54,627 bases of DNA, from positions 1 through 54,627 of the IMG/VR virus record IMGVR_UViG_3300027741_000082; one strand, given 5' to 3'. Position 1 is the stretch's first letter, and each line of letters opens with the position of its first letter. Source of the stretch: a virus. The position numbers and the translations under genes are program-made. The notes beneath the pieces were generated by a model, which saw only the letters and a list, made by a program, of their open reading frames with translations, made no database searches and was not told the origin of the DNA. Of this stretch, positions 1 to 54,627 are shown in pieces.

Positions 1-122
1 GCTGATTCGTTTTCGTAATAGCCCAGCTCGGGATTGATGCCAGTGGCGATCATCATCTCGATGATCTGCTCGGTGGTCTTGCGGTAGAGGTCGCGGTACA
101 TCTGCTCTGCGGTGTAAGACAT
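1..122 (-). CDS. partial small phage protein, duplicate of the N-terminus of the 54231-54611 gene
   Basis: This fragment encodes the first 40 or so residues of the same protein as 54231-54611 and is cut by the window edge. It carries the same AAAGGA ribosome site and ATG. The only differences are three third-position changes near base 1-12, all synonymous (GAA/GAG, GAA/GAG, TCA/TCC). It is therefore best read as the overlap produced by circular closure, not as a second gene. Its transcription would start at the promoter at 161-189. Function is unknown. Confidence 0.75.
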   Translation of the reverse strand, partial: MSYTAEQMYRDLYRKTTEQIIEMMIATGINPELGYYENES

Positions 123-138
123 GGGGTCATCCTTTCTG
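13..138. repeat. terminal direct repeat, left copy
   Basis: Bases 13-138 are identical to 54502-54627, and the match extends to base 1 with three mismatches. The contig ends therefore overlap, which indicates a circular map or circularly permuted, terminally redundant DNA. A true fixed direct terminal repeat should not carry mismatches at one edge. Confidence 0.9.
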
Positions 139-160: not shown

Positions 161-189
161 AAGATAGATGGGTGATTTGACAGTGTCAA
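161..189 (-). promoter_or_regulatory. left-facing sigma70-type promoter with palindromic -35 operator
   Basis: On the minus strand TTGACA (184-189), a 17-base spacer and TATCTT (161-166) form a strong promoter. The -35 box is half of the perfect palindrome TTGACAGTGTCAA (177-189), which suggests a repressor or activator site. It lies about 40 bases before the start codon at 122, and in the circular map it heads the whole 54611-46590 left-facing operon. The same arrangement recurs at 2627, 3452 and 4312. Confidence 0.75.
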
Positions 190-263
190 GTGGGGTTGTG
201 GAAATAATTTACAAATTGTTTTTCGAAGGGCGGCTGTCCTTTGTCCTTAGAGAAGATAGACTC

Positions 264-501
264 TATCAAACATTGTCAATGATATAGTGTGTAACCCTTT
301 GAATATAGGTAGATATCAAAATATAGGGGGTTTCCAGAATTATCATCACTTCCGTCGCGCACACAGTAAACAGAATTGTCGCCTCGTGCACGTACGCGGA
401 GACGGACCCCCCTCTGGACCGTTTCCTCGCTAAACCCCCTATAAGATGATATCCCCCTATATTCAAAGGCTTACATACTATATTTGTTACAATGTTTGAT
501 A
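264..501. repeat. long imperfect inverted repeat in the divergent control region
   Basis: Arms 264-333 and 432-501 are each 70 bases and match at 59 of 70 positions when one is reverse complemented. The 98-base spacer (334-431) contains TCCAGA/TCTGGA and the palindromes GTGCAC and CGTACG. The element sits between left-facing and right-facing transcription units. It could be a replication origin, a pair of mirrored promoters or operators, or a packaging site. The arm ends (TATCAAACATTGT) lie next to the outward transcription units. I see no convincing gene in 139-547. Confidence 0.8.
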
Positions 502-1141: not shown

Positions 1142-1611
1142 AGACCGAAAAAGCAATCTGGGAACACCTGAAAAAGGAAACCGACAAGGACGTTCACTGG
1201 ACCCGCATCGAGGCTTGGGCGGGTTCGGGTATCCCCGACCTGAACGGGGCCTATGTGTGGCCTTCTCTGTCGCAGGAAACCACCATTGAGCTGTGGTGCG
1301 AACTCAAGGTCTGTTCTACCATAAAATTTCAAGGGGATGGACTGTGGAGACCCGCGCAAATTGCATGGCAGACCAAGCGGTCCCGCGTTTCACGCAATGT
1401 CTATAACCTGATCAGCCACCCTCGGGCATGGGTCGTCAGGATTTATGGCGCAGAACACGTGACCCAACTGCACGACCCGTCGACAGAATCGCCAGAACCT
1501 TTGATGATCTTGCCCATTGGCAGGGGGATGTGGTCGGCTTTCCTCGAACTCGCGGCCTCGCGCTCGAAAGAATCGCCAGAATACAAGGACTCGACAGAAT
1601 CGCCAGTGTAA
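1138..1611 (+). CDS. PD-(D/E)XK-type nuclease (VRR-NUC or resolvase-like)
   Basis: A 157-residue protein. The core GSGIPDLN (about residues 29-36), then CELKV (about 54-58), then W..AQIAWQ matches the D...ExK...Q pattern of small PD-(D/E)XK nucleases such as VRR-NUC and archaeal Holliday resolvase-like enzymes. A role in recombination-intermediate or packaging-associated cleavage is inferred from its four-base overlap with the small terminase. The last 45 or so residues look non-globular. They contain STESP, SKESP and STESP, which are encoded by the same AGAATCGCCAG element that is scattered through the downstream intergenic DNA, so the 3' end seems to have been extended by repeats. Confidence 0.65.
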   Translation: MKTEKAIWEHLKKETDKDVHWTRIEAWAGSGIPDLNGAYVWPSLSQETTIELWCELKVCSTIKFQGDGLWRPAQIAWQTKRSRVSRNVYNLISHPRAWVVRIYGAEHVTQLHDPSTESPEPLMILPIGRGMWSAFLELAASRSKESPEYKDSTESPV

Positions 1612-1621: not shown

Positions 1622-1650
1622 CAAAGGAAAGGGGGCTTTCGCCCCCCTGC
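1622..1650 (-). terminator. rho-independent terminator for the 1655-2416 gene
   Basis: The stem GGGGGC-GAAA-GCCCCC (1631-1646) directly follows the stop codon of the left-facing gene. On the minus strand it is followed by a pyrimidine-rich TTTCCTTTG. It lies between convergent genes and may also stop right-facing transcription. Confidence 0.65.
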
Positions 1651-1654
1651 CCCC

Positions 1655-2416
1655 TTAGTGTGCCATGATGACAATGGACTTGCGGACCTTTGCCGAGTGC
1701 CCGCCGCATGCTTTGCAATCGGTGCAGGAAACCTTTGCGCCCGCCTCTTTCGATGCCGGACAAATCGCCTCGTTTGACAAGCGGCTTTCATCTTTCGCCC
1801 GAACTCTAAACGTGCGCCAGCCCGCGTCCCATGCTTGCAAGGCTTCGGCTTCATTGTCCGCGCTTGCCATGGTCAAGGCTTTGAACTTAGCGAACTCTGG
1901 CTTGTGCCACTGATGAGAATAACCGTTAACCATCGCCGCCCGCTTAACAGCCCGCGCCCACATTGCAAAGGGTGCAGCAGCAGGATCCCCGTAGGAACCC
2001 ATGCGAAAGGCTTTACCTTCGAACAAATCGGGCAGGATCCTAGGATCATAGTCTACAATCGGGCGAGCATATCGCCCGCGCCCCAAGGCTTTCCATGTCG
2101 AAAGAACCGACTGGAACACCTTAACATAGCAAGGTTTGATGCCCGCCGCTTTCGCGACACTAGGCCGCCGCTTGCAGTCTCCGCACACTGACGCGTCATC
2201 GCCGGACCGTAAAGCCTCGACCGGATTAATGTCGGACCGAACAATAAAAGTTTGGACCATTGCGCCAGTCTTATCATTATTGCTTTTTGTCGTTATGCGG
2301 TTTGCGATAACAGCAATCGGCTTGCCGTCCAATCGACTCGGACCCTCGTAAAGAATCACGCCCGCGAACTGTCCGCGCTTTAAAGCTTCGACCATTGCGT
2401 CCACTGTCTTAATCAT
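1655..2416 (-). CDS. conserved phage/plasmid protein with paired cysteine clusters
   Basis: A 253-residue protein beginning MIKTVDAMVEAL, with AAAGGA eight bases before the ATG. It has YEGPSRLDGKPIAVIA near residue 23, KTGAMVQTF near 49, a CGDC..(about 15)..C cluster near 98-117 and a second CPAS...CTDCKAC cluster near the C-terminus. These suggest one or two zinc sites. I recognise the pattern as a widespread uncharacterised phage family (I recall it as DUF7227, to be confirmed). It is the second gene of the mini-operon read from 2655. DNA or RNA binding is possible but unproven. Confidence 0.6.
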   Translation of the reverse strand: MIKTVDAMVEALKRGQFAGVILYEGPSRLDGKPIAVIANRITTKSNNDKTGAMVQTFIVRSDINPVEALRSGDDASVCGDCKRRPSVAKAAGIKPCYVKVFQSVLSTWKALGRGRYARPIVDYDPRILPDLFEGKAFRMGSYGDPAAAPFAMWARAVKRAAMVNGYSHQWHKPEFAKFKALTMASADNEAEALQAWDAGWRTFRVRAKDESRLSNEAICPASKEAGAKVSCTDCKACGGHSAKVRKSIVIMAH

Positions 2417-2591
2417 TGTTAGAATCCTTTCTATGGTTAGAAGCTATAAATTTTTGTCCGGCTGCAATCATTGCTTCTTCAACTTCTTCGCTATCAATAA
2501 TCCATTGCGTATCGTGTGGCCTAAAGATTGCCACAATATACCCCGCCGCTTCGAGTTTATTAATGGTTTCAACCACCTCGTTAATGTCCAT
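2409..2591 (-). CDS. small acidic hypothetical protein
   Basis: A 60-residue protein starting MDINEVVETINKLEAAG. I chose this ATG because GAAAGGG stands eight bases upstream; a longer in-frame ATG at 2624 has a poor ribosome site. The protein is helical, acidic and soluble, with no recognised domain. Its end overlaps the start of the 1655-2416 gene by eight bases, so both are probably co-translated from the promoter at 2627-2655. Confidence 0.6.
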   Translation of the reverse strand: MDINEVVETINKLEAAGYIVAIFRPHDTQWIIDSEEVEEAMIAAGQKFIASNHRKDSNND

Positions 2592-2626
2592 AGGATAACC
2601 CTTTCTTCGGTTTAAAAGACTCATTA

Positions 2627-2655
2627 GGTTTAACAGGATCCGGTGACATTGTCAA
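2627..2655 (-). promoter_or_regulatory. left-facing promoter with palindromic -35 operator
   Basis: On the minus strand TTGACA (2650-2655), 17 bases, then TAAACC (2627-2632). The -35 box lies in GTGACATTGTCAAC, one mismatch from the palindrome at 177-189. The -10 TAAACC followed by TA is identical to that at 3452. The start codon is 36 bases from the -10. Confidence 0.65.
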
Positions 2656-2689
2656 CTAATAAATCGCCAAAATAAATCGCCGCGATTTA

Positions 2690-2795
2690 TTGCGCCCGCC
2701 GGAATCGCCCGCCGCGCCCGCTCGAAAGAATCGCCAGTGTTTAAGATAGAACCCGAGAGAATCGCCCGCCGCGCCTCGTTAGAATCGCCAGTGTT
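2690..2795. repeat. promoter-upstream repeat cassette with four GAATCGCC copies
   Basis: GAATCGCC occurs near 2702, 2726, 2758 and 2783. Two copies continue as CAGTGTT. The segment TTGCGCCCGCCGGAA ... CCGCCGCGCCCGCTCG ... AGAATCGCCAGTGTTTAA recurs at 3508-3582 in the same position relative to the next promoter. Every copy contains GANTC, the CcrM methylation site. Confidence 0.75.
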
Positions 2796-2810
2796 ATAAT
2801 ATACAGGCAT

Positions 2811-2837
2811 AAAAAAAGGGCCCGCCGAAGCGGGCCC
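2811..2837 (-). terminator. rho-independent terminator after the 2856-3083 gene
   Basis: On the minus strand the perfect stem GGGCCCGC-TTCG-GCGGGCCC is followed by seven T. It closes the mini-operon read from 3480. Confidence 0.9.
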
Positions 2838-2855
2838 CCGTAGCAGGGCGACAAG

Positions 2856-3083
2856 TTAGAGCATGGCTTTCAATTCAGCCTTGATCCGCTTGGCGGTTTC
2901 GCCCCGCCAAGTGGCAGCGTTCGCGAGAAAGTAGCGAACGATGCTATCTCCAGAATCATAGTAAAAAGGGTCTTCGATGGAACTTAGCGTCGCCATGGCT
3001 TGCAGATATGGAACCGCTCCGAAGTAGGGCTTCTTCCAATCGACAGATATCTCGCGGGCGATAGTGTGCAATGGACGTGTCAT
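2856..3083 (-). CDS. small basic hypothetical protein
   Basis: A 75-residue protein starting MTRPLHTIAREIS, chosen for the AGGAGAAAGCAC ribosome site right before the ATG. The start at 3260 would run through the hairpin cassette. It is helix-rich with a lysine and arginine rich C-terminus (AKRIKAELKAML). I recognise no domain. It is the second gene of its mini-operon, following 3136-3414 across a GGGCCCGC hairpin, and is closed by the strong terminator at 2811. Confidence 0.6.
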   Translation of the reverse strand: MTRPLHTIAREISVDWKKPYFGAVPYLQAMATLSSIEDPFYYDSGDSIVRYFLANAATWRGETAKRIKAELKAML

Positions 3084-3108
3084 GTGCTTTCTCCTAATGA
3101 CATGTGGT

Positions 3109-3128
3109 GGGCCCGCCGGAGCGGGCCC
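3109..3128 (-). promoter_or_regulatory. intergenic GC hairpin cassette before a ribosome site
   Basis: GGGCCCGC-TCCG-GCGGGCCC on the minus strand, without a T tract, lies between the stop at 3136 and the AGGAGAAAG ribosome site of the next gene. The same block, TAACCC(T/C)ATC plus hairpin plus ACCA, is present at 3856. Possible roles are mRNA stabilisation, processing or attenuation. Confidence 0.65.
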
Positions 3129-3135
3129 GATAGGG

Positions 3136-3414
3136 TTAGTCGTTCGTGATGACAGGCAGGGCCGCTTGCATGGTGTAGATCCACTGGTCCACATCAGCAA
3201 TGGCCTGATCATACTGGCCCCGCTTGTAGACCTTGCCTGTAATCTTTCCGGCCCTCTCAAGAGAAGCCTTCGGAGTAGCAGTGCGGGTTAACCGCATGCC
3301 ATGCTTGATAGCCTTCAGAGCATGCTTAACCGCGAAAGCATGCAGTAACCGTGTCGCGTCAGGCCCGACATACGCGGTAACCCCTTCGCCTCGCTTTGCA
3401 ATGTATGAGTCCAT
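3136..3414 (-). CDS. small basic hypothetical protein
   Basis: A 92-residue protein starting MDSYIAKRGEGVTAYVG, with AAGGAGAAAGATT before the ATG. Upstream in-frame starts run into the promoter at 3452, so this start is preferred. It is strongly basic in the middle (KHALKAIKHGMRLTRT), compatible with nucleic-acid binding, but has no recognised fold. It is the first gene of the mini-operon. The palindrome CCTGAAC-C-GTTCAGG (3430-3444) lies in its leader. Confidence 0.6.
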   Translation of the reverse strand: MDSYIAKRGEGVTAYVGPDATRLLHAFAVKHALKAIKHGMRLTRTATPKASLERAGKITGKVYKRGQYDQAIADVDQWIYTMQAALPVITND

Positions 3415-3429
3415 AATCTTTCTCCTTAA

Positions 3430-3444
3430 CCTGAACCGTTCAGG
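3430..3444. promoter_or_regulatory. leader palindrome, possible operator
   Basis: CCTGAAC-C-GTTCAGG is a perfect 7-1-7 palindrome between the -10 box (3452) and the start codon (3414). It could be a second operator or a small hairpin in the mRNA leader. It is not present in the other two mini-operons. Confidence 0.45.
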
Positions 3445-3451
3445 CCATATA

Positions 3452-3480
3452 GGTTTATCAGTGACCTTTGACAGTGTCAA
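3452..3480 (-). promoter_or_regulatory. left-facing promoter with palindromic -35 operator
   Basis: On the minus strand TTGACA (3475-3480), 17 bases, then TAAACC (3452-3457). The -35 is half of the perfect palindrome TTGACAGTGTCAA (3468-3480). It has the same spacing and -10 as the promoter at 2627. Confidence 0.7.
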
Positions 3481-3507
3481 CAAATTATTTTGCGCCTCGA
3501 CCGGATT

Positions 3508-3582
3508 GTTGCGCCCGCCGGAAACGAAAAAGCGGGCCCGACTGAACCGCCGCGCCCGCTCGCTAGAATCGCCAGTGTTTAA
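3508..3582. repeat. second copy of the promoter-upstream repeat cassette
   Basis: TTGCGCCCGCCGGAA, CCGCCGCGCCCGCTCG and AGAATCGCCAGTGTTTAA appear in the order seen at 2690-2744. Here they are separated by a segment that carries the terminator of the preceding mini-operon. Confidence 0.75.
3526..3559 (-). terminator. rho-independent terminator after the 3586-3834 gene
   Basis: On the minus strand GCGGGC, a 16-base loop, GCCCGC and then TTTTTCG. It lies inside the repeat cassette and closes the mini-operon read from 4340. Confidence 0.7.
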
Positions 3583-3585
3583 AGA

Positions 3586-3834
3586 TTAGTCCGCTAGCAT
3601 CTCGCCGACACGGTCGGTGATAGATTGCCAATCGTCGCCCGACATGTGCTCCTTATAGATCATGTCGACAATCGCCAGTGCCCGCTCCGGCGTCACTGTC
3701 ATCTCTTGCTCTGCCGCAACCTCATAGATATCCTCTACCGATATCGATAGTAGAACCCTAACCCCGTTCGAATGCAACACGTCAAAGGCTCTCTGGATAC
3801 GGTCGTCTTGTCTTGCGTCACTGATGATAATCAT
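3586..3834 (-). CDS. small acidic hypothetical protein
   Basis: An 82-residue protein starting MIIISDARQDDRIQRAF, with AGGAGAAAGACC before the ATG. The N-terminus reads like a short beta strand followed by a helix (a DARQDDRI stretch and an SNGVRVLLSI strand), and the C-terminus is acidic. No family is recognised. It is the second gene of the mini-operon headed by 3883-4260, separated from it by a hairpin cassette. Confidence 0.6.
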   Translation of the reverse strand: MIIISDARQDDRIQRAFDVLHSNGVRVLLSISVEDIYEVAAEQEMTVTPERALAIVDMIYKEHMSGDDWQSITDRVGEMLAD

Positions 3835-3855
3835 GGTCTTTCTCCTATGGTTGGT

Positions 3856-3875
3856 GGGCCCGCCGAAGCGGGCCC
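3856..3875 (-). promoter_or_regulatory. intergenic GC hairpin cassette before a ribosome site
   Basis: GGGCCCGC-TTCG-GCGGGCCC on the minus strand lies between the 3883 stop and the next ATAGGAGAAAG ribosome site. It matches the block at 3109-3128 including the flanking ATC and ACCA. Confidence 0.65.
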
Positions 3876-3882
3876 GATGGGG

Positions 3883-4260
3883 TTAAGCGAGGATCGAGTC
3901 GCGGGCCTTGAACCCGACTGTCGTATCGTAGGGCTTATAGTGTTCGCCAAACATAACTTCGAAGTAGGCATGGGGCCCGAACGTCGACCAACGACCCTGC
4001 CCGCTTGACCCCTTCCAGTCCCAGATATGCATGACGAACCCTGTGAAGCTCTCGGGCCCGCCGACCTCGAACAGCCATTCGCGAGTGACCTTACCGCCGA
4101 GATCATCAGACTTGATCGATGGGATATTCAGGATCGACTCGATATGGCGGGCGGACACCCCGACAAGTTCTCCGGTCTTCCAAGTCTGGATACCGTGCCC
4201 GACGTCGTCCAGTGTGATGATCCGCATGGGGATCACGTAGCGTGATGTTTCTTTTGTCAT
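3883..4260 (-). CDS. hypothetical protein
   Basis: A 125-residue soluble protein starting MTKETSRYVIPMRII. It is rich in aromatic residues and glycine in the second half (HIWDWKGSSGQGRWSTFGP), suggesting a compact beta-rich fold, but I recognise no family. The ATG follows AGAGAAAGAAAGAAAGTC, a purine-rich ribosome region. It is first in the mini-operon driven by the promoter at 4312-4340. Confidence 0.6.
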   Translation of the reverse strand: MTKETSRYVIPMRIITLDDVGHGIQTWKTGELVGVSARHIESILNIPSIKSDDLGGKVTREWLFEVGGPESFTGFVMHIWDWKGSSGQGRWSTFGPHAYFEVMFGEHYKPYDTTVGFKARDSILA

Positions 4261-4311
4261 GTGACTTTCTTTCTTTCTCTACGATTAAGAACCACTCTCA
4301 ACCGTGCCTAT

Positions 4312-4340
4312 ACTCTACATGATACAATTGACATTGTCAA
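4312..4340 (-). promoter_or_regulatory. left-facing promoter with palindromic -35 operator
   Basis: On the minus strand TTGACA (4335-4340), 17 bases, then TAGAGT (4312-4317). The -35 is half of the perfect palindrome TTGACATTGTCAA (4328-4340). Confidence 0.7.
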
Positions 4341-4594: not shown

Positions 4595-4740
4595 TTGACA
4601 TTGTAGTGTACCGGTTAATAACCGAGGTCAGAGGTTTTTTGCTGTTTCCCCTCTGTTTAGGTGGACCACAGGAGAACAGCGTCAGGTCCACCACTCGGAA
4701 CCTCCCATAAAAAATGGGGAGCCGAAGCCCCCCATTTATT
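4595..4740 (+). ncRNA. candidate structured small RNA ending at a terminator
   Basis: TTGACA at 4595-4600 is followed by TAATAA-like AT-rich sequence. Downstream three helices can form: GAGGT/ACCTC (4624-4628 with 4700-4704) closing over CAGAGG/CCTCTG (4629-4634, 4650-4655) and GGTGGACC/GGTCCACC (4660-4667, 4685-4692). A terminator-like hairpin with TTTATT follows. The -10 box is weak and its spacing to the first helix is tight, so transcription is uncertain. It is not a tRNA: I find no matching T-arm or acceptor stem. Confidence 0.35.
4709..4737 (-). terminator. rho-independent terminator after the 4760-4987 gene
   Basis: On the minus strand AAATGGGG-GC-TTCG-GC-CCCCATTTTTT forms a ten-pair stem with one mismatch and a T tract. 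The hairpin is nearly symmetrical and could also end right-facing transcripts. Confidence 0.85.
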
Positions 4741-5206: not shown

Positions 5207-6679
5207 TTGCCCTCTGAACTTGCACATAGCCTCCCGGAAGACGCGGCTCGCCAATACGCTCGTCTTTTGGAAAGAGCGGCGAGACTTGCCACTCTAGAGA
5301 AGGCCAAGGTTGGCTTTCTTGATTTCGTTAAGTTTGTGTGGCCCGGGTTTATTGCCGGGAGACACCATAGGATTGTTGCTGAGAAGCTTGAGGCCATGGC
5401 GCGTGGCGAGCTCAAGCGTTTGATCATCAACATGCCGCCGAGGCATACGAAGTCTGAGTTTGCCAGCTACCTGTTTCCGGCTTGGTTCATAGGGCAGATG
5501 CCAGACAAGAAGATTATGCAAGCGACCCATACCGCTGATCTGTCGATCCGGTTTGGGCGTAAAGTGAGAAACCTAATGGATGGGGATATGTTCAAGCCCA
5601 TCTTTCCAGAAGTGAAGCTACGGTCAGATTCCAAGGCAGCGTATCGCTGGGAGACCGATCAAGGAGGAGAGTACTATGCAGCGGGTGTTGGGGGTAATAT
5701 CGCAGGGCGCGGCGCGGATCTTTTCATTGTTGACGATCCGCACTCAGAACAAGACGCCCTCTCACCAACAGCAATGGAAGGCGCATGGGAATGGTATCAA
5801 TCCGGACCACGCCAGCGTCTTCAGCCCGGAGGGGCGATCCTTGTTGTTATGACCCGGTGGGGGGAGGCGGATCTGACCGCCCGCCTTTTAAAGCAGCAAG
5901 CGACAGATCCCAAAGCCGATCAGTGGGAGGTCGTGGAGTTTCCGGCAATATTGGATAGCGGTGAGCCGCTCTGGCCTGAGTACTGGAAGCTTGAGGAACT
6001 TGAGGGGATCAAGGCTTCGATCACCCTGTCCAAGTGGCAAGCGCAGTACATGCAGCAGCCAACGGCGGACTCGGTGTCCATCATCAAGCGTAGCTGGTGG
6101 AACGTGTGGGAGCAGGAGAAGGTTCCCCGTTTGCAATACGTCATGCAGTCTTACGACACGGCGCACACCAAAAAGAAGACGGCTGACTACAGCGCGATCC
6201 AGACGTGGGGGGTCTTTTACCCCAGAGAGGATGGCCCGGCGAACGTCATCTTGCTGGACTGCAAGAAAGGCAGATGGGAGTTCCCCGAGCTCAAACGCAT
6301 TGCCCTTGAAGAGTACAAGTACTGGGAACCGGAGACCGTGCTGATCGAAGCAAAGGCTGCGGGCCTCCCTCTGTTACAGGAACTCCGGAGCGTAGGCATC
6401 CCGGCGGTGGACTTTACGCCGAGCCGTGGGAATGATAAGCATGTACGTCTGAACTCGATTGCTTCCCTGTTTGAAGCGGGGCTTGTCTGGAGGCCAGAGG
6501 CATCTTGGGCGGAAGAGGTTGTCGAGGAGATAGCCGCGTTCCCCAACGGTGAGCACGACGACTTGGTTGACTGCGCTTCACAGGCCCTCATGCGATTCCG
6601 GCAGGGTGGCTTTGTTACACATCCGGATGACTACACCATGGACGAAGGTCCGAGGTCAACGTACAGGGTTTATTACTGA
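5207..6679 (+). CDS. terL: terminase large subunit
   Basis: A 490-residue packaging ATPase and nuclease. The ATPase shows a Walker A-type PPRHTKSE (about 77-84), Walker B LFIVDDP (172-178) and the coupling motif VVMTRW (213-218). The C-terminal RNase H-like nuclease shows YDTAHTKKKTADYS (about 316) and HDDLVDC (about 450). It pumps DNA into the prohead through the portal. Translation starts at TTG with GGAG nine bases upstream. The stop overlaps the portal start (TGATG). It is separated from terS by the left-facing accessory island, which is unusual. Confidence 0.95.
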   Translation: MPSELAHSLPEDAARQYARLLERAARLATLEKAKVGFLDFVKFVWPGFIAGRHHRIVAEKLEAMARGELKRLIINMPPRHTKSEFASYLFPAWFIGQMPDKKIMQATHTADLSIRFGRKVRNLMDGDMFKPIFPEVKLRSDSKAAYRWETDQGGEYYAAGVGGNIAGRGADLFIVDDPHSEQDALSPTAMEGAWEWYQSGPRQRLQPGGAILVVMTRWGEADLTARLLKQQATDPKADQWEVVEFPAILDSGEPLWPEYWKLEELEGIKASITLSKWQAQYMQQPTADSVSIIKRSWWNVWEQEKVPRLQYVMQSYDTAHTKKKTADYSAIQTWGVFYPREDGPANVILLDCKKGRWEFPELKRIALEEYKYWEPETVLIEAKAAGLPLLQELRSVGIPAVDFTPSRGNDKHVRLNSIASLFEAGLVWRPEASWAEEVVEEIAAFPNGEHDDLVDCASQALMRFRQGGFVTHPDDYTMDEGPRSTYRVYY

Positions 6680-9077: not shown

Positions 9078-10325
9078 ATGGTAGACAAAGCTCAGTACTT
9101 CCGTTCCCTTGAAGACCGCTATGGCTTGCCTGAGGGTTACCTCAGCCGGACGGAAACTATTGAAAGTCAGGGGAATGTACGGGCTTACAACAAGAACTCC
9201 GGGGCGGCTGGTCCCTTTCAGTTCGTCCCGAAGAGTCAAAAAGAGTTCAACCTTAAAGACCCCTACAGCTTGGAAGAGTCTGCCGAAGCAGCGGCCCGTA
9301 TGGCTGCTCGGAACAAGGTTTCTTTACAGCGTCAGGGTATTGAAAACCCAACAGCCGCCGATTTGTACGCGGCCCATCAGCAAGGGGCCAAAGGTTATGT
9401 TGATCTTTTGAGGGCCGGAGACCAGCCAGCGTCAAAGGTTGTTGGAGAAGATGCTGTTGTGTGGAACGGCGGCAAGCCCAATATGTCTGCCTCCGAGTTT
9501 GCAAACAAAATTACTAATAAGTTTTCCGGAGACGCCTCATCTCAACCCAAAACTTTTAGCCCTCCTTCTGCCGGAGTATTAGAGAAGCCTAAGGTTGACG
9601 TTGCAGAAACACCTGAGCAAGCAGCCGCCCTCGAAGGTCAGCAAGCAGCTTTGTCTACGCAGGATGTTTTGGATACCGCCAACGCTTCCTCGGGGCGATC
9701 CGGAAACGGCTTGAAAGAACTTGGGTTCCTCCACAACTATTTCAAATCCCTTGATACCAGTGCCACGGGGGTGAAGCCCTTAGCTGTTCCTGACTTTTTT
9801 CTCCAGCAAAGGTATAAGGAAGGTGGTATTGTTTCCTTAAAGGAGAATGCCAAGCAGGGTCGTGCTACTGGTATTGCCGGTATTGTTGACACACAAACAA
9901 AAAATGATAAAACTTACTTTCGCGGAATGTCTAACCGCGAATACAGGAGCTTTAAAAAAACAGGTCACATAAAAAGCACGGGTGAATATAATGTTGGCAG
10001 TAGTGAAAAAGGGTTGACATTTTTTTCAAAAGACCCCGCTGAGGCTGCATTTTATGCTCACGAATACGCACCCCTAAAATACAAGGCAACAGCAACAAAA
10101 CCCGCTTATGTTGTTGAGGCAAAAATACATGATTCAAAAAAGAAAATAGATGCGCCCGGCGGTGTTGGAGTTAATGGGAAAATACATGAAAAACATGTTG
10201 TTTCTGTGCATCGTGGTAGGCCAACCGAAAATGGAATGGAATGGGCAACCATTCACTCACCATCTGACCCAGTTAAAAAAATTCAATCTATAGCTGTGTT
10301 AAGTCAAATTAGAAAAGGTCTTTAA
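9078..10325 (+). CDS. virion lytic transglycosylase fused to a possible ADP-ribosyltransferase-like domain
   Basis: A 415-residue protein. Residues 1-150 look like a soluble lytic transglycosylase, with the likely catalytic E29 in ETIESQG and GAAGPFQFVP near 42-51. It would cut peptidoglycan during DNA entry. A flexible linker follows. From about residue 280 the sequence changes to YFRGMSNREY ... GLTFFSKDPAEAAFYA, a pattern reminiscent of R-S-E ADP-ribosyltransferase folds, but I cannot place the glutamate. The DNA becomes clearly AT-richer from about 9890, so the tail end may be acquired. It sits between portal and scaffold, consistent with an internal virion protein. Confidence 0.65.
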   Translation: MVDKAQYFRSLEDRYGLPEGYLSRTETIESQGNVRAYNKNSGAAGPFQFVPKSQKEFNLKDPYSLEESAEAAARMAARNKVSLQRQGIENPTAADLYAAHQQGAKGYVDLLRAGDQPASKVVGEDAVVWNGGKPNMSASEFANKITNKFSGDASSQPKTFSPPSAGVLEKPKVDVAETPEQAAALEGQQAALSTQDVLDTANASSGRSGNGLKELGFLHNYFKSLDTSATGVKPLAVPDFFLQQRYKEGGIVSLKENAKQGRATGIAGIVDTQTKNDKTYFRGMSNREYRSFKKTGHIKSTGEYNVGSSEKGLTFFSKDPAEAAFYAHEYAPLKYKATATKPAYVVEAKIHDSKKKIDAPGGVGVNGKIHEKHVVSVHRGRPTENGMEWATIHSPSDPVKKIQSIAVLSQIRKGL

Positions 10326-10327
10326 TC

Positions 10328-12241
10328 ATGGCTGATAATTATCAGGGGGTATTAAAGGGATTAGCAAGTTTAAATTCAGGGCTTGATTCAGCCGGAAGAT
10401 TTAACGCGCAAAATTATTTGATGAGTAATTTGCAAGAAGGGCAAATGATAATTCCTGCCGATGTTTTAAAGGCACACCCAGAGTTACAATCATCTTTAAA
10501 CCAAATTCTCTCATCTCATGACATGAATAGCAATCAGTTTTTGGTTGGAGATGAGGGTATGAGGTATACTGGATTTGGCCCGCAGATTCATTTAGGATCT
10601 GGATGGACCACTGGAAGTGCTGCTTACGGACCATATAGCGGTCAAACAACAGACGTTAATTTTCAAAACGCCTTTGCCGGTCCATACCTAGAAAACAATC
10701 CTGTTTCCCCAGATCAATATGATTTACGGGCAGACTTACCATCTCTCAAAAGTCAGCCTGTAAATCATATTGATACACAAAATGAAGATTATAAATTTGA
10801 CCAAACGGAACCCACTTCACAGGTTTTAAACACTGGGTTTAAAACCCAACCTGATGTGGTGACAGCACAACCGATTTTGCCAGATTTTGGTGATGTTCAT
10901 GTATTGCCACCAGATCCGCGTTCAGACTATACATTTTTTAATGTACAACCCAACCCAACAACTGATTTTATCAAAACCGCACAAGACACGGGCGATCAAG
11001 CTCTTAATCTAGGGGATCAATCAAAATATACATATCAGCCAGTCACCACTGACCCAGCGGGTGGAGTTAGCGGGGGTAGCAACGCTACAAAGGATATGAG
11101 CATAAGTTTTGTTAATCGAGACGATTTAGACCCACAAGAGCAGGCTAACGTTAACAAAGCTTTTGCTGCCATGCAAACCAATACGCAAACACCAACGTTT
11201 GAACAAAACCCGCTTTTAACAAAACCAGATCCAGGTTATGAAGAAAATAAATTTAACCAAACCAATACACCGACAACATTTTCATTAACAGAAACGGACA
11301 CGGACGCTACTAGCCCTAAAATAGACCGGCAGACTATTGATGAAGTTATTAAAAATGAGCCAGTTATTAAAAATGAGCCAGTTATTAAAAAAGAGCCAGT
11401 TGTTGAAAGAAGTTCAGACGTTGCAAAAACGCTTGATTTTTTACAGGCAAAAGATGAGGCTGAAGCGCAAGAGTGGAAAGATTATAACCAGCGTGTGTTA
11501 GAAAATGCCAAGGGTATTGGCAATATGGTTGATACCCTAAGTGGCACAAATTTAACACAAACCGTTATGGACGCAATTACAACTTCATTACAAAATAAAC
11601 AAAATGAGAACGCAGAATTAACCAAGGATCTTTTAAAAAATCCACTAACAAGTAACAATACGATTGATCTTCTTAAAGATTCTTTAACCAAGGATCAAGA
11701 AACAATCGATGCTTTTAAAAAATCCACTACCCAAACCGTCGTTGATACAACTACCGATGGAAAAACTACTACCGATGGAAAAACTACTACCGATGGAAAA
11801 ACTACTACCGATGGAAAAACTACTACCGACGGAAAAACTACTACCGACGGAAAAACTACTACCGACGGAAAAACTAGTTTAGACGATGGTACTGGCAAAG
11901 GGAAAGGACCGGGAGATGGTACTGACGATGGTACTGGCAAAGGGAAAGGACCGGGAGATGGTACTGACGATAGCTCTAAGACTCCACCAAAAGACATTAT
12001 TATAAACCCAAAAGAGCCGTATCAGGAACCTAAAATTGTTTCATTGGAGACAAACACAACCAAAACCGTGTCCCCAGTAAAATATGATGTTTCAAAATTT
12101 CTTGGGAGCTTGGGGAAACCTACTCCTACTGCCTCCGTATATAAATCGCATCCTATATCAGTGGCTCCTACTCAACTTGGTATAGGACAGTTCTATAAAC
12201 CATACTTCCCACTTGTTCCCTACCAAAGGAGATACCCATGA
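10328..12241 (+). CDS. AT-rich low-complexity virion-associated protein
   Basis: A 637-residue protein of unknown function. It is low in complexity, rich in T, D, N, Q, K and P, and AT-rich in its codons, unlike the portal before it or the scaffold after it. It contains three copies of an 18-bp unit (VIKNEP) at 11345-11398, seven of an 18-bp unit (TDGKTT) at 11753-11878 and two of a 42-bp unit (DGTGKGKGPG...) at 11885-11968. The C-terminus is proline and tyrosine rich. The position before lysis and scaffold genes suggests an internal or ejection protein, but this is inference. Confidence 0.6.
   Translation: MADNYQGVLKGLASLNSGLDSAGRFNAQNYLMSNLQEGQMIIPADVLKAHPELQSSLNQILSSHDMNSNQFLVGDEGMRYTGFGPQIHLGSGWTTGSAAYGPYSGQTTDVNFQNAFAGPYLENNPVSPDQYDLRADLPSLKSQPVNHIDTQNEDYKFDQTEPTSQVLNTGFKTQPDVVTAQPILPDFGDVHVLPPDPRSDYTFFNVQPNPTTDFIKTAQDTGDQALNLGDQSKYTYQPVTTDPAGGVSGGSNATKDMSISFVNRDDLDPQEQANVNKAFAAMQTNTQTPTFEQNPLLTKPDPGYEENKFNQTNTPTTFSLTETDTDATSPKIDRQTIDEVIKNEPVIKNEPVIKKEPVVERSSDVAKTLDFLQAKDEAEAQEWKDYNQRVLENAKGIGNMVDTLSGTNLTQTVMDAITTSLQNKQNENAELTKDLLKNPLTSNNTIDLLKDSLTKDQETIDAFKKSTTQTVVDTTTDGKTTTDGKTTTDGKTTTDGKTTTDGKTTTDGKTTTDGKTSLDDGTGKGKGPGDGTDDGTGKGKGPGDGTDDSSKTPPKDIIINPKEPYQEPKIVSLETNTTKTVSPVKYDVSKFLGSLGKPTPTASVYKSHPISVAPTQLGIGQFYKPYFPLVPYQRRYP
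11345..11398 (+). repeat. three tandem 18-bp units
   Basis: Three in-frame copies encoding VIKNEP, VIKNEP and VIKKEP; the third has one changed residue. Confidence 0.85.
11753..11878 (+). repeat. seven tandem 18-bp units
   Basis: Units ACCGATGGAAAAACTACT (four) then the GAC variant (three) encode TDGKTT. The block split of GAT and GAC units suggests recent slippage expansion. Confidence 0.9.
11885..11968 (+). repeat. two identical 42-bp units
   Basis: Two exact copies encoding DGTGKGKGPGDGTD follow the 18-bp array after a short gap. Confidence 0.9.
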
Positions 12242-54230: not shown

Positions 54231-54611
54231 TCAGCAGAGCTCGGCACTGGTGTCATACCAGCGGACCTGTTCATCGTTGTCGATGGGGATTTCATCATAA
54301 GGATCGATAACACAGTAGCTGATTGTGTCGTCAGCATCCTCGGCTGGACGGTCATAGGTCCAGTAGGGGATCTCGCCGCTGTCCTCTGCCTTTTGCACTG
54401 CGATGTCGCCGATGCGGTTCATCACGCGGGAGAAGTCGGATCCGCTAAGGCGGTTCATCAGATGCAACGCGCCCATGTCGAAGAGGTTTGCGGACTCGTT
54501 CTCGTAATAGCCCAGCTCGGGATTGATGCCAGTGGCGATCATCATCTCGATGATCTGCTCGGTGGTCTTGCGGTAGAGGTCGCGGTACATCTGCTCTGCG
54601 GTGTAAGACAT
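54231..54611 (-). CDS. first gene of the left-facing early operon
   Basis: A 126-residue acidic protein starting MSYTAEQMYRDLYRKTTEQIIEMM. AAAGGA precedes the ATG. LFDMGALHLMNRLSGSDFSRVMNRIGDIA is helical; the C-terminal half is acidic with aromatic residues. Its first 40 or so codons are repeated at 1-122 by the overlap of the ends. In the circular genome its promoter is at 161-189. Confidence 0.7.
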   Translation of the reverse strand: MSYTAEQMYRDLYRKTTEQIIEMMIATGINPELGYYENESANLFDMGALHLMNRLSGSDFSRVMNRIGDIAVQKAEDSGEIPYWTYDRPAEDADDTISYCVIDPYDEIPIDNDEQVRWYDTSAELC

Positions 54612-54627
54612 GGGGTCATCCTTTCTG
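54502..54627. repeat. terminal direct repeat, right copy
   Basis: Exact match to 13-138. It contains the start of the first early gene, so the join lies inside a gene and the operon is continuous across the ends. Confidence 0.9.

What the first reader, a model, noticed from the sequence alone, without database searches (positions are those of the whole stretch)
1622..4340. Three parallel two-gene mini-operons built from shared DNA cassettes
Each unit has a palindrome promoter, first gene, second gene and terminator (4340-3526, 3480-2811, 2655-1622). Two share a hairpin cassette (TAACCC.ATC, GGGCCCGC hairpin, ACCA, AGGAGAAAG) before the second gene, and two share the upstream repeat cassette. 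The proteins are unrelated to each other. This looks like a modular accessory island in which shared non-coding blocks allow gene swapping, possibly of anti-defence genes.
Basis: partly seen in the sequence, partly recalled or inferred. Interest (0 to 1): 0.7.

Follow-up and report, generated by a model that had tools for sequence, protein, structure and literature searches.

The report
Phage gene slots joined by hairpins
A phage carries a small leftward-read gene block in which the same RNA hairpin sits at its gene-to-gene joints, and near relatives of the phage have gained, lost or swapped genes exactly at those hairpins, so the block behaves like a plug-in board for small genes of unknown function.

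Summary
The window is a near-complete 54.6 kb phage genome related to HTVC023P/HTVC027P pelagiphages, and 1622-4340 holds three two-gene leftward units: A-B, C-D and E-F. Palindromic promoters, a 20-bp hairpin present three times and clustered GAATCGCCAG repeats all exceed chance. Five haplotypes carry, behind gene A, B (window, L013), another gene b (L007/L014), b plus B (L008/L011), or D directly (L040). Breakpoints fall in or at the edge of the hairpin cassette. The L013 joint is what a deletion between two 29-bp hairpin repeats of an L008-like genome would give. The L040 A-D joint equals the C-D cassette of L007 (52 of 52 bases) although gene D is only 75% identical. Gene E is likewise a present, variant or absent slot before F. 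Anti-defence function has no support. C, D and F are old conserved neighbours rather than cargo. The hairpin is probably an intercistronic mRNA-protecting element: several more distant relatives keep a T-less hairpin of unrelated sequence 6-8 nt after gene C. Closest precedents are T4 PeSL cassettes, morons and phage boundary sequences, so this is a new variant of a known kind.

The parts
3883..4260 (-). gene A (125 aa), first gene of unit 1; relatives found only in this phage clade; 72-86% nt identity between haplotypes
3586..3834 (-). gene B (82 aa), second gene of unit 1; replaced by b, preceded by b, or absent in relatives
3136..3414 (-). gene C (92 aa), first gene of unit 2; absent in L040; old neighbour of D in distant relatives
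2856..3083 (-). gene D (75 aa), phrog_13953, widespread phage protein of unknown function; small helical protein in the model
2409..2591 (-). gene E (60 aa), slot gene: same, diverged (57% aa) or absent in relatives; its frame overlaps the start of F
1655..2416 (-). gene F (253 aa), phrog_2554, with invariant cysteines, widespread phage protein of unknown function
4312..4340 (-). promoter P1 with palindromic -35 (TTGACAATGTCAA, 17-nt spacer, TAGAGT)
3452..3480 (-). promoter P2 with palindromic -35 (TTGACACTGTCAA, 17-nt spacer, TAAACC)
   Evidence: and sequence
2627..2655 (-). promoter P3 with palindromic -35 (TTGACAATGTCAC, 17-nt spacer, TAAACC)
   Evidence: and sequence
161..189 (-). promoter P4, same palindrome, in front of the leftward genes that continue at the other end of the record (54611 downward)
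3835..3882 (-). joint A/B: CCCCATC, UUCG hairpin (3856-3875), ACCA, AGGAGAAAG; no T tract
3084..3135 (-). joint C/D: CCCTATC, UCCG hairpin (3109-3128), ACCA, AGGAGAAAG; a second stem (TGTCAT/ATGACA) covers the start codon of D and encloses its Shine-Dalgarno
2809..2839 (-). same hairpin followed by T7: terminator of unit 2
3536..3582 (-). spacer repeat ACTGGCGATTCT..CGAGCGGGCGCGG between B and P2, next to a weak terminator-like hairpin
2698..2798 (-). two spacer repeats between the terminator of unit 2 and P3
1485..1607 (+). three more copies of the AGAATCGCCAG repeat inside the 3' coding tail of the ORF 1138-1611
1629..1648 (-). terminator-like hairpin after F

Best explanation
The region is a leftward block of small phage genes in which constant regulatory joints (palindromic promoter, intercistronic hairpin plus ribosome-binding leader, hairpin-T terminator, spacer repeat) frame exchangeable gene slots. 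SHOWN by comparison: among five haplotypes of otherwise close phages the slot behind A holds B, b, b+B or nothing before D, and the slot in front of F holds E, a diverged E or nothing; similarity changes abruptly at the edges of the hairpin cassette or just behind the promoter. INFERRED: short homologous recombination between hairpin copies, within or between genomes, makes the exchanges and leaves transcription and translation signals intact. INFERRED: in the transcript the hairpin, 7-8 nt after the stop codon of A or C and without a U tract, protects the 3' end of the first message and lets transcription pass; the same hairpin with a U tract ends the unit. INFERRED: the palindrome over the -35 box is an operator that lets one regulator control all four leftward promoters.
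For: Five haplotypes of the island. The L013 A-B joint equals the predicted product of a deletion between the two 29-bp repeats TCGGGCCCGCTTCGGCGGGCCCACCATCG of L008 (3 mismatches in 64, all in the leader of B). The L040 A-D joint is identical to the L007 C-D joint for 52 of 52 intergenic bases while D is 75% identical at DNA level; the crossover maps to TAACCC. The downstream flank of b is shared by L007 and L008 up to the last base of the hairpin (2 mismatches in 41 nt), then splits into a T tract or the leader of B. Window against L011: about 99% identity from TerL to promoter P1, abrupt drop at 4306 just behind P1, back to 30/30 at stop codon plus hairpin, then a mosaic in the leader and B with windows as low as 14-25 of 30. 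The exact cassette occurs in 10 stretches of the whole viral collection, all of this clade and at this locus. A T-less hairpin within 15 nt of the stop codon of C is kept in many distant relatives with unrelated sequences, against 1% of random positions.
Against: Only five independent haplotypes, each from metagenome assembly; the A-D state rests on one contig. Swaps at gene ends are also expected if illegitimate recombination is filtered by selection. No recombinase was identified among the genes scanned. No RNA data exist, so the roles of hairpin and palindrome are untested. The B terminator is weak.
Confidence: 0.72

Rival explanations
1. The hairpins are there only for RNA reasons (message stability, partial termination). 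Swaps happen by illegitimate recombination anywhere, and selection keeps those that fall between genes; the shared sequence is a by-product.
For: Distant relatives keep an intercistronic hairpin after gene C with unrelated sequences, so the structure is selected for itself; gene-boundary breakpoints without shared sequence are common in mycobacteriophages (PMC3029335).
Against: Within this clade the breakpoints fall inside or at the edge of identical sequence, one product matches recombination between 29-bp repeats, and a complete 52-bp cassette sits behind a new gene in L040.
Confidence: 0.3
2. Integron-like gene cassettes with attC-type sites recombined by a tyrosine recombinase.
For: Single genes alternate with a folded repeat, and attC arrays are known in phages (PMC9892861).
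Against: The repeat is a 20-nt perfect hairpin with a 4-nt loop; an R box GTTRRRY can be read at the A-B joint but not at C-D or b-B (sequences). No integrase was seen among the scanned genes, but not every gene was scanned.
Confidence: 0.02
3. The island is a set of counter-defence genes kept variable by selection from host defence systems.
For: Small variable genes under promoters shared with the other leftward genes; turnover of A, B/b and E.
Against: No match to any defence or anti-defence family; D and F are widespread conserved phage proteins; b has relatives only among hypothetical proteins of alphaproteobacterial phages.
Confidence: 0.2

Closest known systems
PeSL (promoter early stem-loop) cassettes of T4-like phages (Arbiol 2010, Comeau 2014; cited in PMC4503421, originals not held)
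   Same: Short regulatory blocks with a stem-loop flank small genes and mediate shuffling between closely related phages.
   Different: Different phage group; here the main swap joint lies inside a two-gene transcript and has no promoter of its own; promoter and hairpin are separate blocks.
Morons and short conserved boundary sequences of phage mosaicism (PMC3029335)
   Same: Genes present in one phage and missing in its sister; recombination at short shared sequences at gene edges, as in Brujita/Island3.
   Different: A moron carries its own promoter and terminator; b, B and E plug into an existing promoter and an existing joint. The same joint occurs at several places of one genome.
Start-associated sequences (SAS/ESAS) of cluster K mycobacteriophages (PMC3203893)
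   Same: Repeated short sequence, partly with inverted repeats, just upstream of start codons; suggested there as a possible recombination target.
   Different: Other sequence, spread over the genome there and confined to one locus here; here the hairpin follows the stop codon of the gene before.
Intercistronic mRNA-protecting hairpins (puf, malEFG and 26 E. coli gene pairs; PMC5927463)
   Same: Stable hairpin directly behind the first gene of an operon, not followed by a U tract.
   Different: Known cases are chromosomal operons; here one hairpin sequence is repeated and gene exchange occurs at it. No RNA data here.

Membership tests
PeSL cassette (definition from PMC4503421 and memory; original papers not held) | composite early promoter plus stem-loop in one intergenic cassette | tested here: not met
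   Intra-unit joints hold a hairpin but no promoter; promoter, spacer and terminator hairpin form separate blocks between units
PeSL cassette (definition from PMC4503421 and memory; original papers not held) | cassettes lie at the boundaries of genes that are swapped between close relatives | tested here: met
PeSL cassette (definition from PMC4503421 and memory; original papers not held) | carried by a T4-like myovirus | tested here: not met
   TerL 57-63% identical to HTVC023P/HTVC027P-type phages
Moron | inserted gene with its own promoter and terminator, absent in a sister genome | tested here: not met
   b, B and E are gained or lost without a promoter of their own
Mosaic junction by short boundary sequence | recombinant junction lies in a short sequence shared by both parents | tested here: met
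   29-bp repeat for L013/L008, TAACCC at the edge of the hairpin cassette for L040
Intercistronic protective hairpin | stable hairpin just behind the first gene of an operon, without a U tract | tested here: met
   8-bp stem 7 nt after the stop; the two joints fold at -21.6 and -26.1 kcal/mol
Intercistronic protective hairpin | stable mRNA 3' end maps to the hairpin | not testable with these tools
   no transcript data
Integron attC array | R box GTTRRRY at each site | tested here: not met
   no R box at the C-D and b-B joints (sequences, read by eye)
Integron attC array | integron integrase nearby | tested here: inconclusive
   none among the genes scanned, but not all genes were scanned
SAS/ESAS | GGGATAGGAGCCC-type 13-mer before start codons across the genome | tested here: not met
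   the leader here is AGGAGAAAG behind a hairpin, and the hairpin occurs only at this locus

The most novel reading that the evidence does not exclude
One hairpin sequence serves as a universal joint: with a T tract it ends a unit; without it, followed by a ribosome-binding leader, it links two genes. Recombination at the hairpin therefore turns a terminal gene into an internal one and back, and the phage population shuffles small genes by this joint without breaking expression.
Probability: 0.4. Interest if true: 0.6.

Novelty: new variant of a known kind. Interest (0 to 1): 0.45.

Why it matters
How phages swap single small genes without damaging expression is often put down to random breaks plus selection, because shared boundary sequences are rarely visible. 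Here the boundary sequence, recombinant products and likely parental joints can be read in close relatives, in a phage group outside T4. It gives a concrete, testable case in which RNA-level signals double as recombination sites, and a way to find interchangeable phage genes by looking for the joint.

Tried and rejected
Function of the proteins: Pfam, PHROGs, NCBIfam, PADLOC, PDB sequence search, and AlphaFold2 plus Foldseek for D (pLDDT 96) and F (pLDDT 91) gave no informative match, so no function is claimed. Gene A has no relative in 50,697 phage records. No relative of b was confirmed in bacterial genomes with the one scan made. Integron attC sites rejected: no conserved R box. Spread of the exact cassette to unrelated viruses rejected: the whole-collection scan finds only this clade. 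The spacer repeat was scanned too; apart from clade members, hits were single copies without any of the island genes, as expected by chance. Mis-assembly of L040 at repeats considered: in the window, L007 and L013 the A joint and the C-D joint share exact words of only 12-22 bp, short for assembler words, and L040 has its own diverged A and D; not excluded without reads. The original PeSL papers are not held, so that comparison rests on a citing paper and memory.
Full report
WHAT THE WINDOW IS. The window is a 54,627-base IMG/VR virus record. Its large terminase is 57-63% identical to those of pelagiphages HTVC023P and HTVC027P and of two other phages. It also encodes a portal protein, DNA polymerase, helicases, primase and endolysin. 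A relative (L012) runs across the record ends, and the last about 138 bases repeat the first with a few differences, so the genome is close to complete and circular or permuted. The finding lies between the small terminase (548-1141) with ORF 1138-1611, and the large terminase (5207-6679), all of which read rightward; the finding reads leftward.

THE OBSERVATION. Two points are added. First, a fourth palindromic promoter at 189-161 stands before the next leftward genes, which continue at the other end of the record (54611 downward), so the same promoter type serves other leftward genes as well. Second, each palindrome contains the -35 box, with a -10-like hexamer after 17 nt. One point is weaker than stated: the terminator of unit 1 has a long loop and no proper T tract.

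TerL, gene A and other island genes were used to fetch relatives. Contigs carrying the island fall into five haplotypes; h is the hairpin joint and P the palindromic promoter. Window and its near-identical copies: P-A-h-B, P-C-h-D, P-E-F. L007/L014: P-A-h-b, P-C-h-D, P-E-F. L008/L011: P-A-h-b-h-B, P-C-h-D, P-e-F. L013: P-A-h-B, P-C-h-D, P-F. L040: P-A-h-D, P-F. So the slot behind A holds B, b, b plus B, or nothing before D, and the slot before F holds E, a diverged e (57% aa) or nothing.

WHERE THE BREAKS ARE. (i) L008 carries two copies of a 29-bp word, TCGGGCCCGCTTCGGCGGGCCCACCATCG, one on each side of b. Deleting between them predicts the L013 A-B joint with 3 differences in 64, all in the leader of B. 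The direction (loss or gain of b) is not known. (ii) In L040 the intergenic sequence behind A is identical, 52 of 52, to the C-D joint of L007, although the two D genes are 75% identical; at 75% identity 52 matches in a row have a probability near 3e-7. The crossover lies within TAACCC. Because C-D-F is also the order in distant relatives, L040 most likely lost B, P2 and C. (iii) Downstream of b, L007 and L008 agree up to the last base of the hairpin and then continue as T6 terminator or as the leader of B. (iv) Window against L011: identity of about 99% from the terminase to P1, an abrupt fall at 4306 just behind P1, a return to 30/30 at the stop codon plus hairpin, then a mosaic in the leader and B. 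TerL is 98% identical in that pair, while A is 83% and B 81%.

HOW SPECIFIC THE CASSETTE IS. A scan of the whole viral collection for the hairpin plus YACC finds 10 stretches, all from this clade and this locus. In more distant relatives C, D and F keep their order, but the hairpin after C has another sequence (GGGGGAGC-GCAA-GCTCCCCC, or a 13-14 bp stem with TGGTGATCA) or is missing. Where present it again starts 6-8 nt after the stop and has no T tract. By the same criterion 1% of random positions have one. The structure is therefore kept while the sequence is not, which argues for a role in RNA.

MECHANISM. Best reading: a two-gene message starts at a palindromic promoter. The T-less hairpin behind the first gene acts as a 3' protective element, as described for many E. 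coli operons and the Rhodobacter puf operon (PMC5927463), and the second gene is translated from its own leader. At the C-D joint a second stem covers the start codon of D and encloses its Shine-Dalgarno, so D may be further controlled. Since the hairpin is the same at each joint, recombination between copies moves whole genes with the right leader or terminator. Shown: the haplotypes, the positions of the breaks, the conservation. Inferred: homologous recombination as the route, RNA protection, and the palindrome as operator.

FUNCTION OF THE GENES. Not determined. F (phrog_2554; invariant cysteines, AlphaFold2 pLDDT 91) and D (phrog_13953; four helices, pLDDT 96) have no significant structural match. 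They are neighbours in many phages, including Gordonia phages. b has distant relatives in Rhodobacter, Caulobacter, Brevundimonas and Rhizobium phages, which hints at an alphaproteobacterial host. Nothing supports anti-defence.

NOVELTY. Short boundary sequences, morons and T4 PeSL cassettes are known (PMC3029335, PMC4503421). What differs is that the joint lies inside the transcript, that one hairpin serves as both joint and terminator, and that recombinant and likely parental states are both visible in a phage group unrelated to T4. New variant of a known kind; interest moderate.

Noticed in passing
window 4621-4699 (+): Rfam CyVA-1 small RNA (RF02965, 52.6 bits, gathering score 41.4) in the non-coding stretch upstream of gene A on the opposite strand; also above threshold in L011, L013, L040, L014 and the more distant L017. 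A TTGACATTGTA promoter-like box lies at 4595.
   Followed up: partly
window 262-333 and 432-503: 72-nt inverted repeat, 85% complementary with 98 nt between the arms, in the divergent region between promoter P4 and the small terminase; similar repeats in relatives. Possible origin, packaging or regulatory site.
   Followed up: no
window 2856-3083 and 1655-2416: Proteins D and F are neighbours in many phages of very different kinds, including Gordonia phages where D is about 70% identical; they may work together. F has invariant cysteines like a metal site.
   Followed up: partly
window 1485-1607: The 3' coding tail of the ORF 1138-1611 holds three copies of the same GAATCGCCAG repeat that fills the spacers of the island, as if the repeat had spread into the gene.
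   Followed up: no
L172-L181, spacer between D and F: More distant relatives carry their own, unrelated repeat family (AATTGCATCTTAGGCCCGCGC) at the same place before F; the function of such lineage-specific spacer repeats is unknown.
   Followed up: no
window 1-138 and 54490-54627: The ends of the record overlap with a few differences, so the genome is essentially complete and circular or permuted.
   Followed up: partly
window 10001-12000: G+C falls to 0.40 against about 0.52 elsewhere, over the 637-aa ORF 10328-12241, which has only weak matches to unknown families; possibly recently acquired.
   Followed up: no
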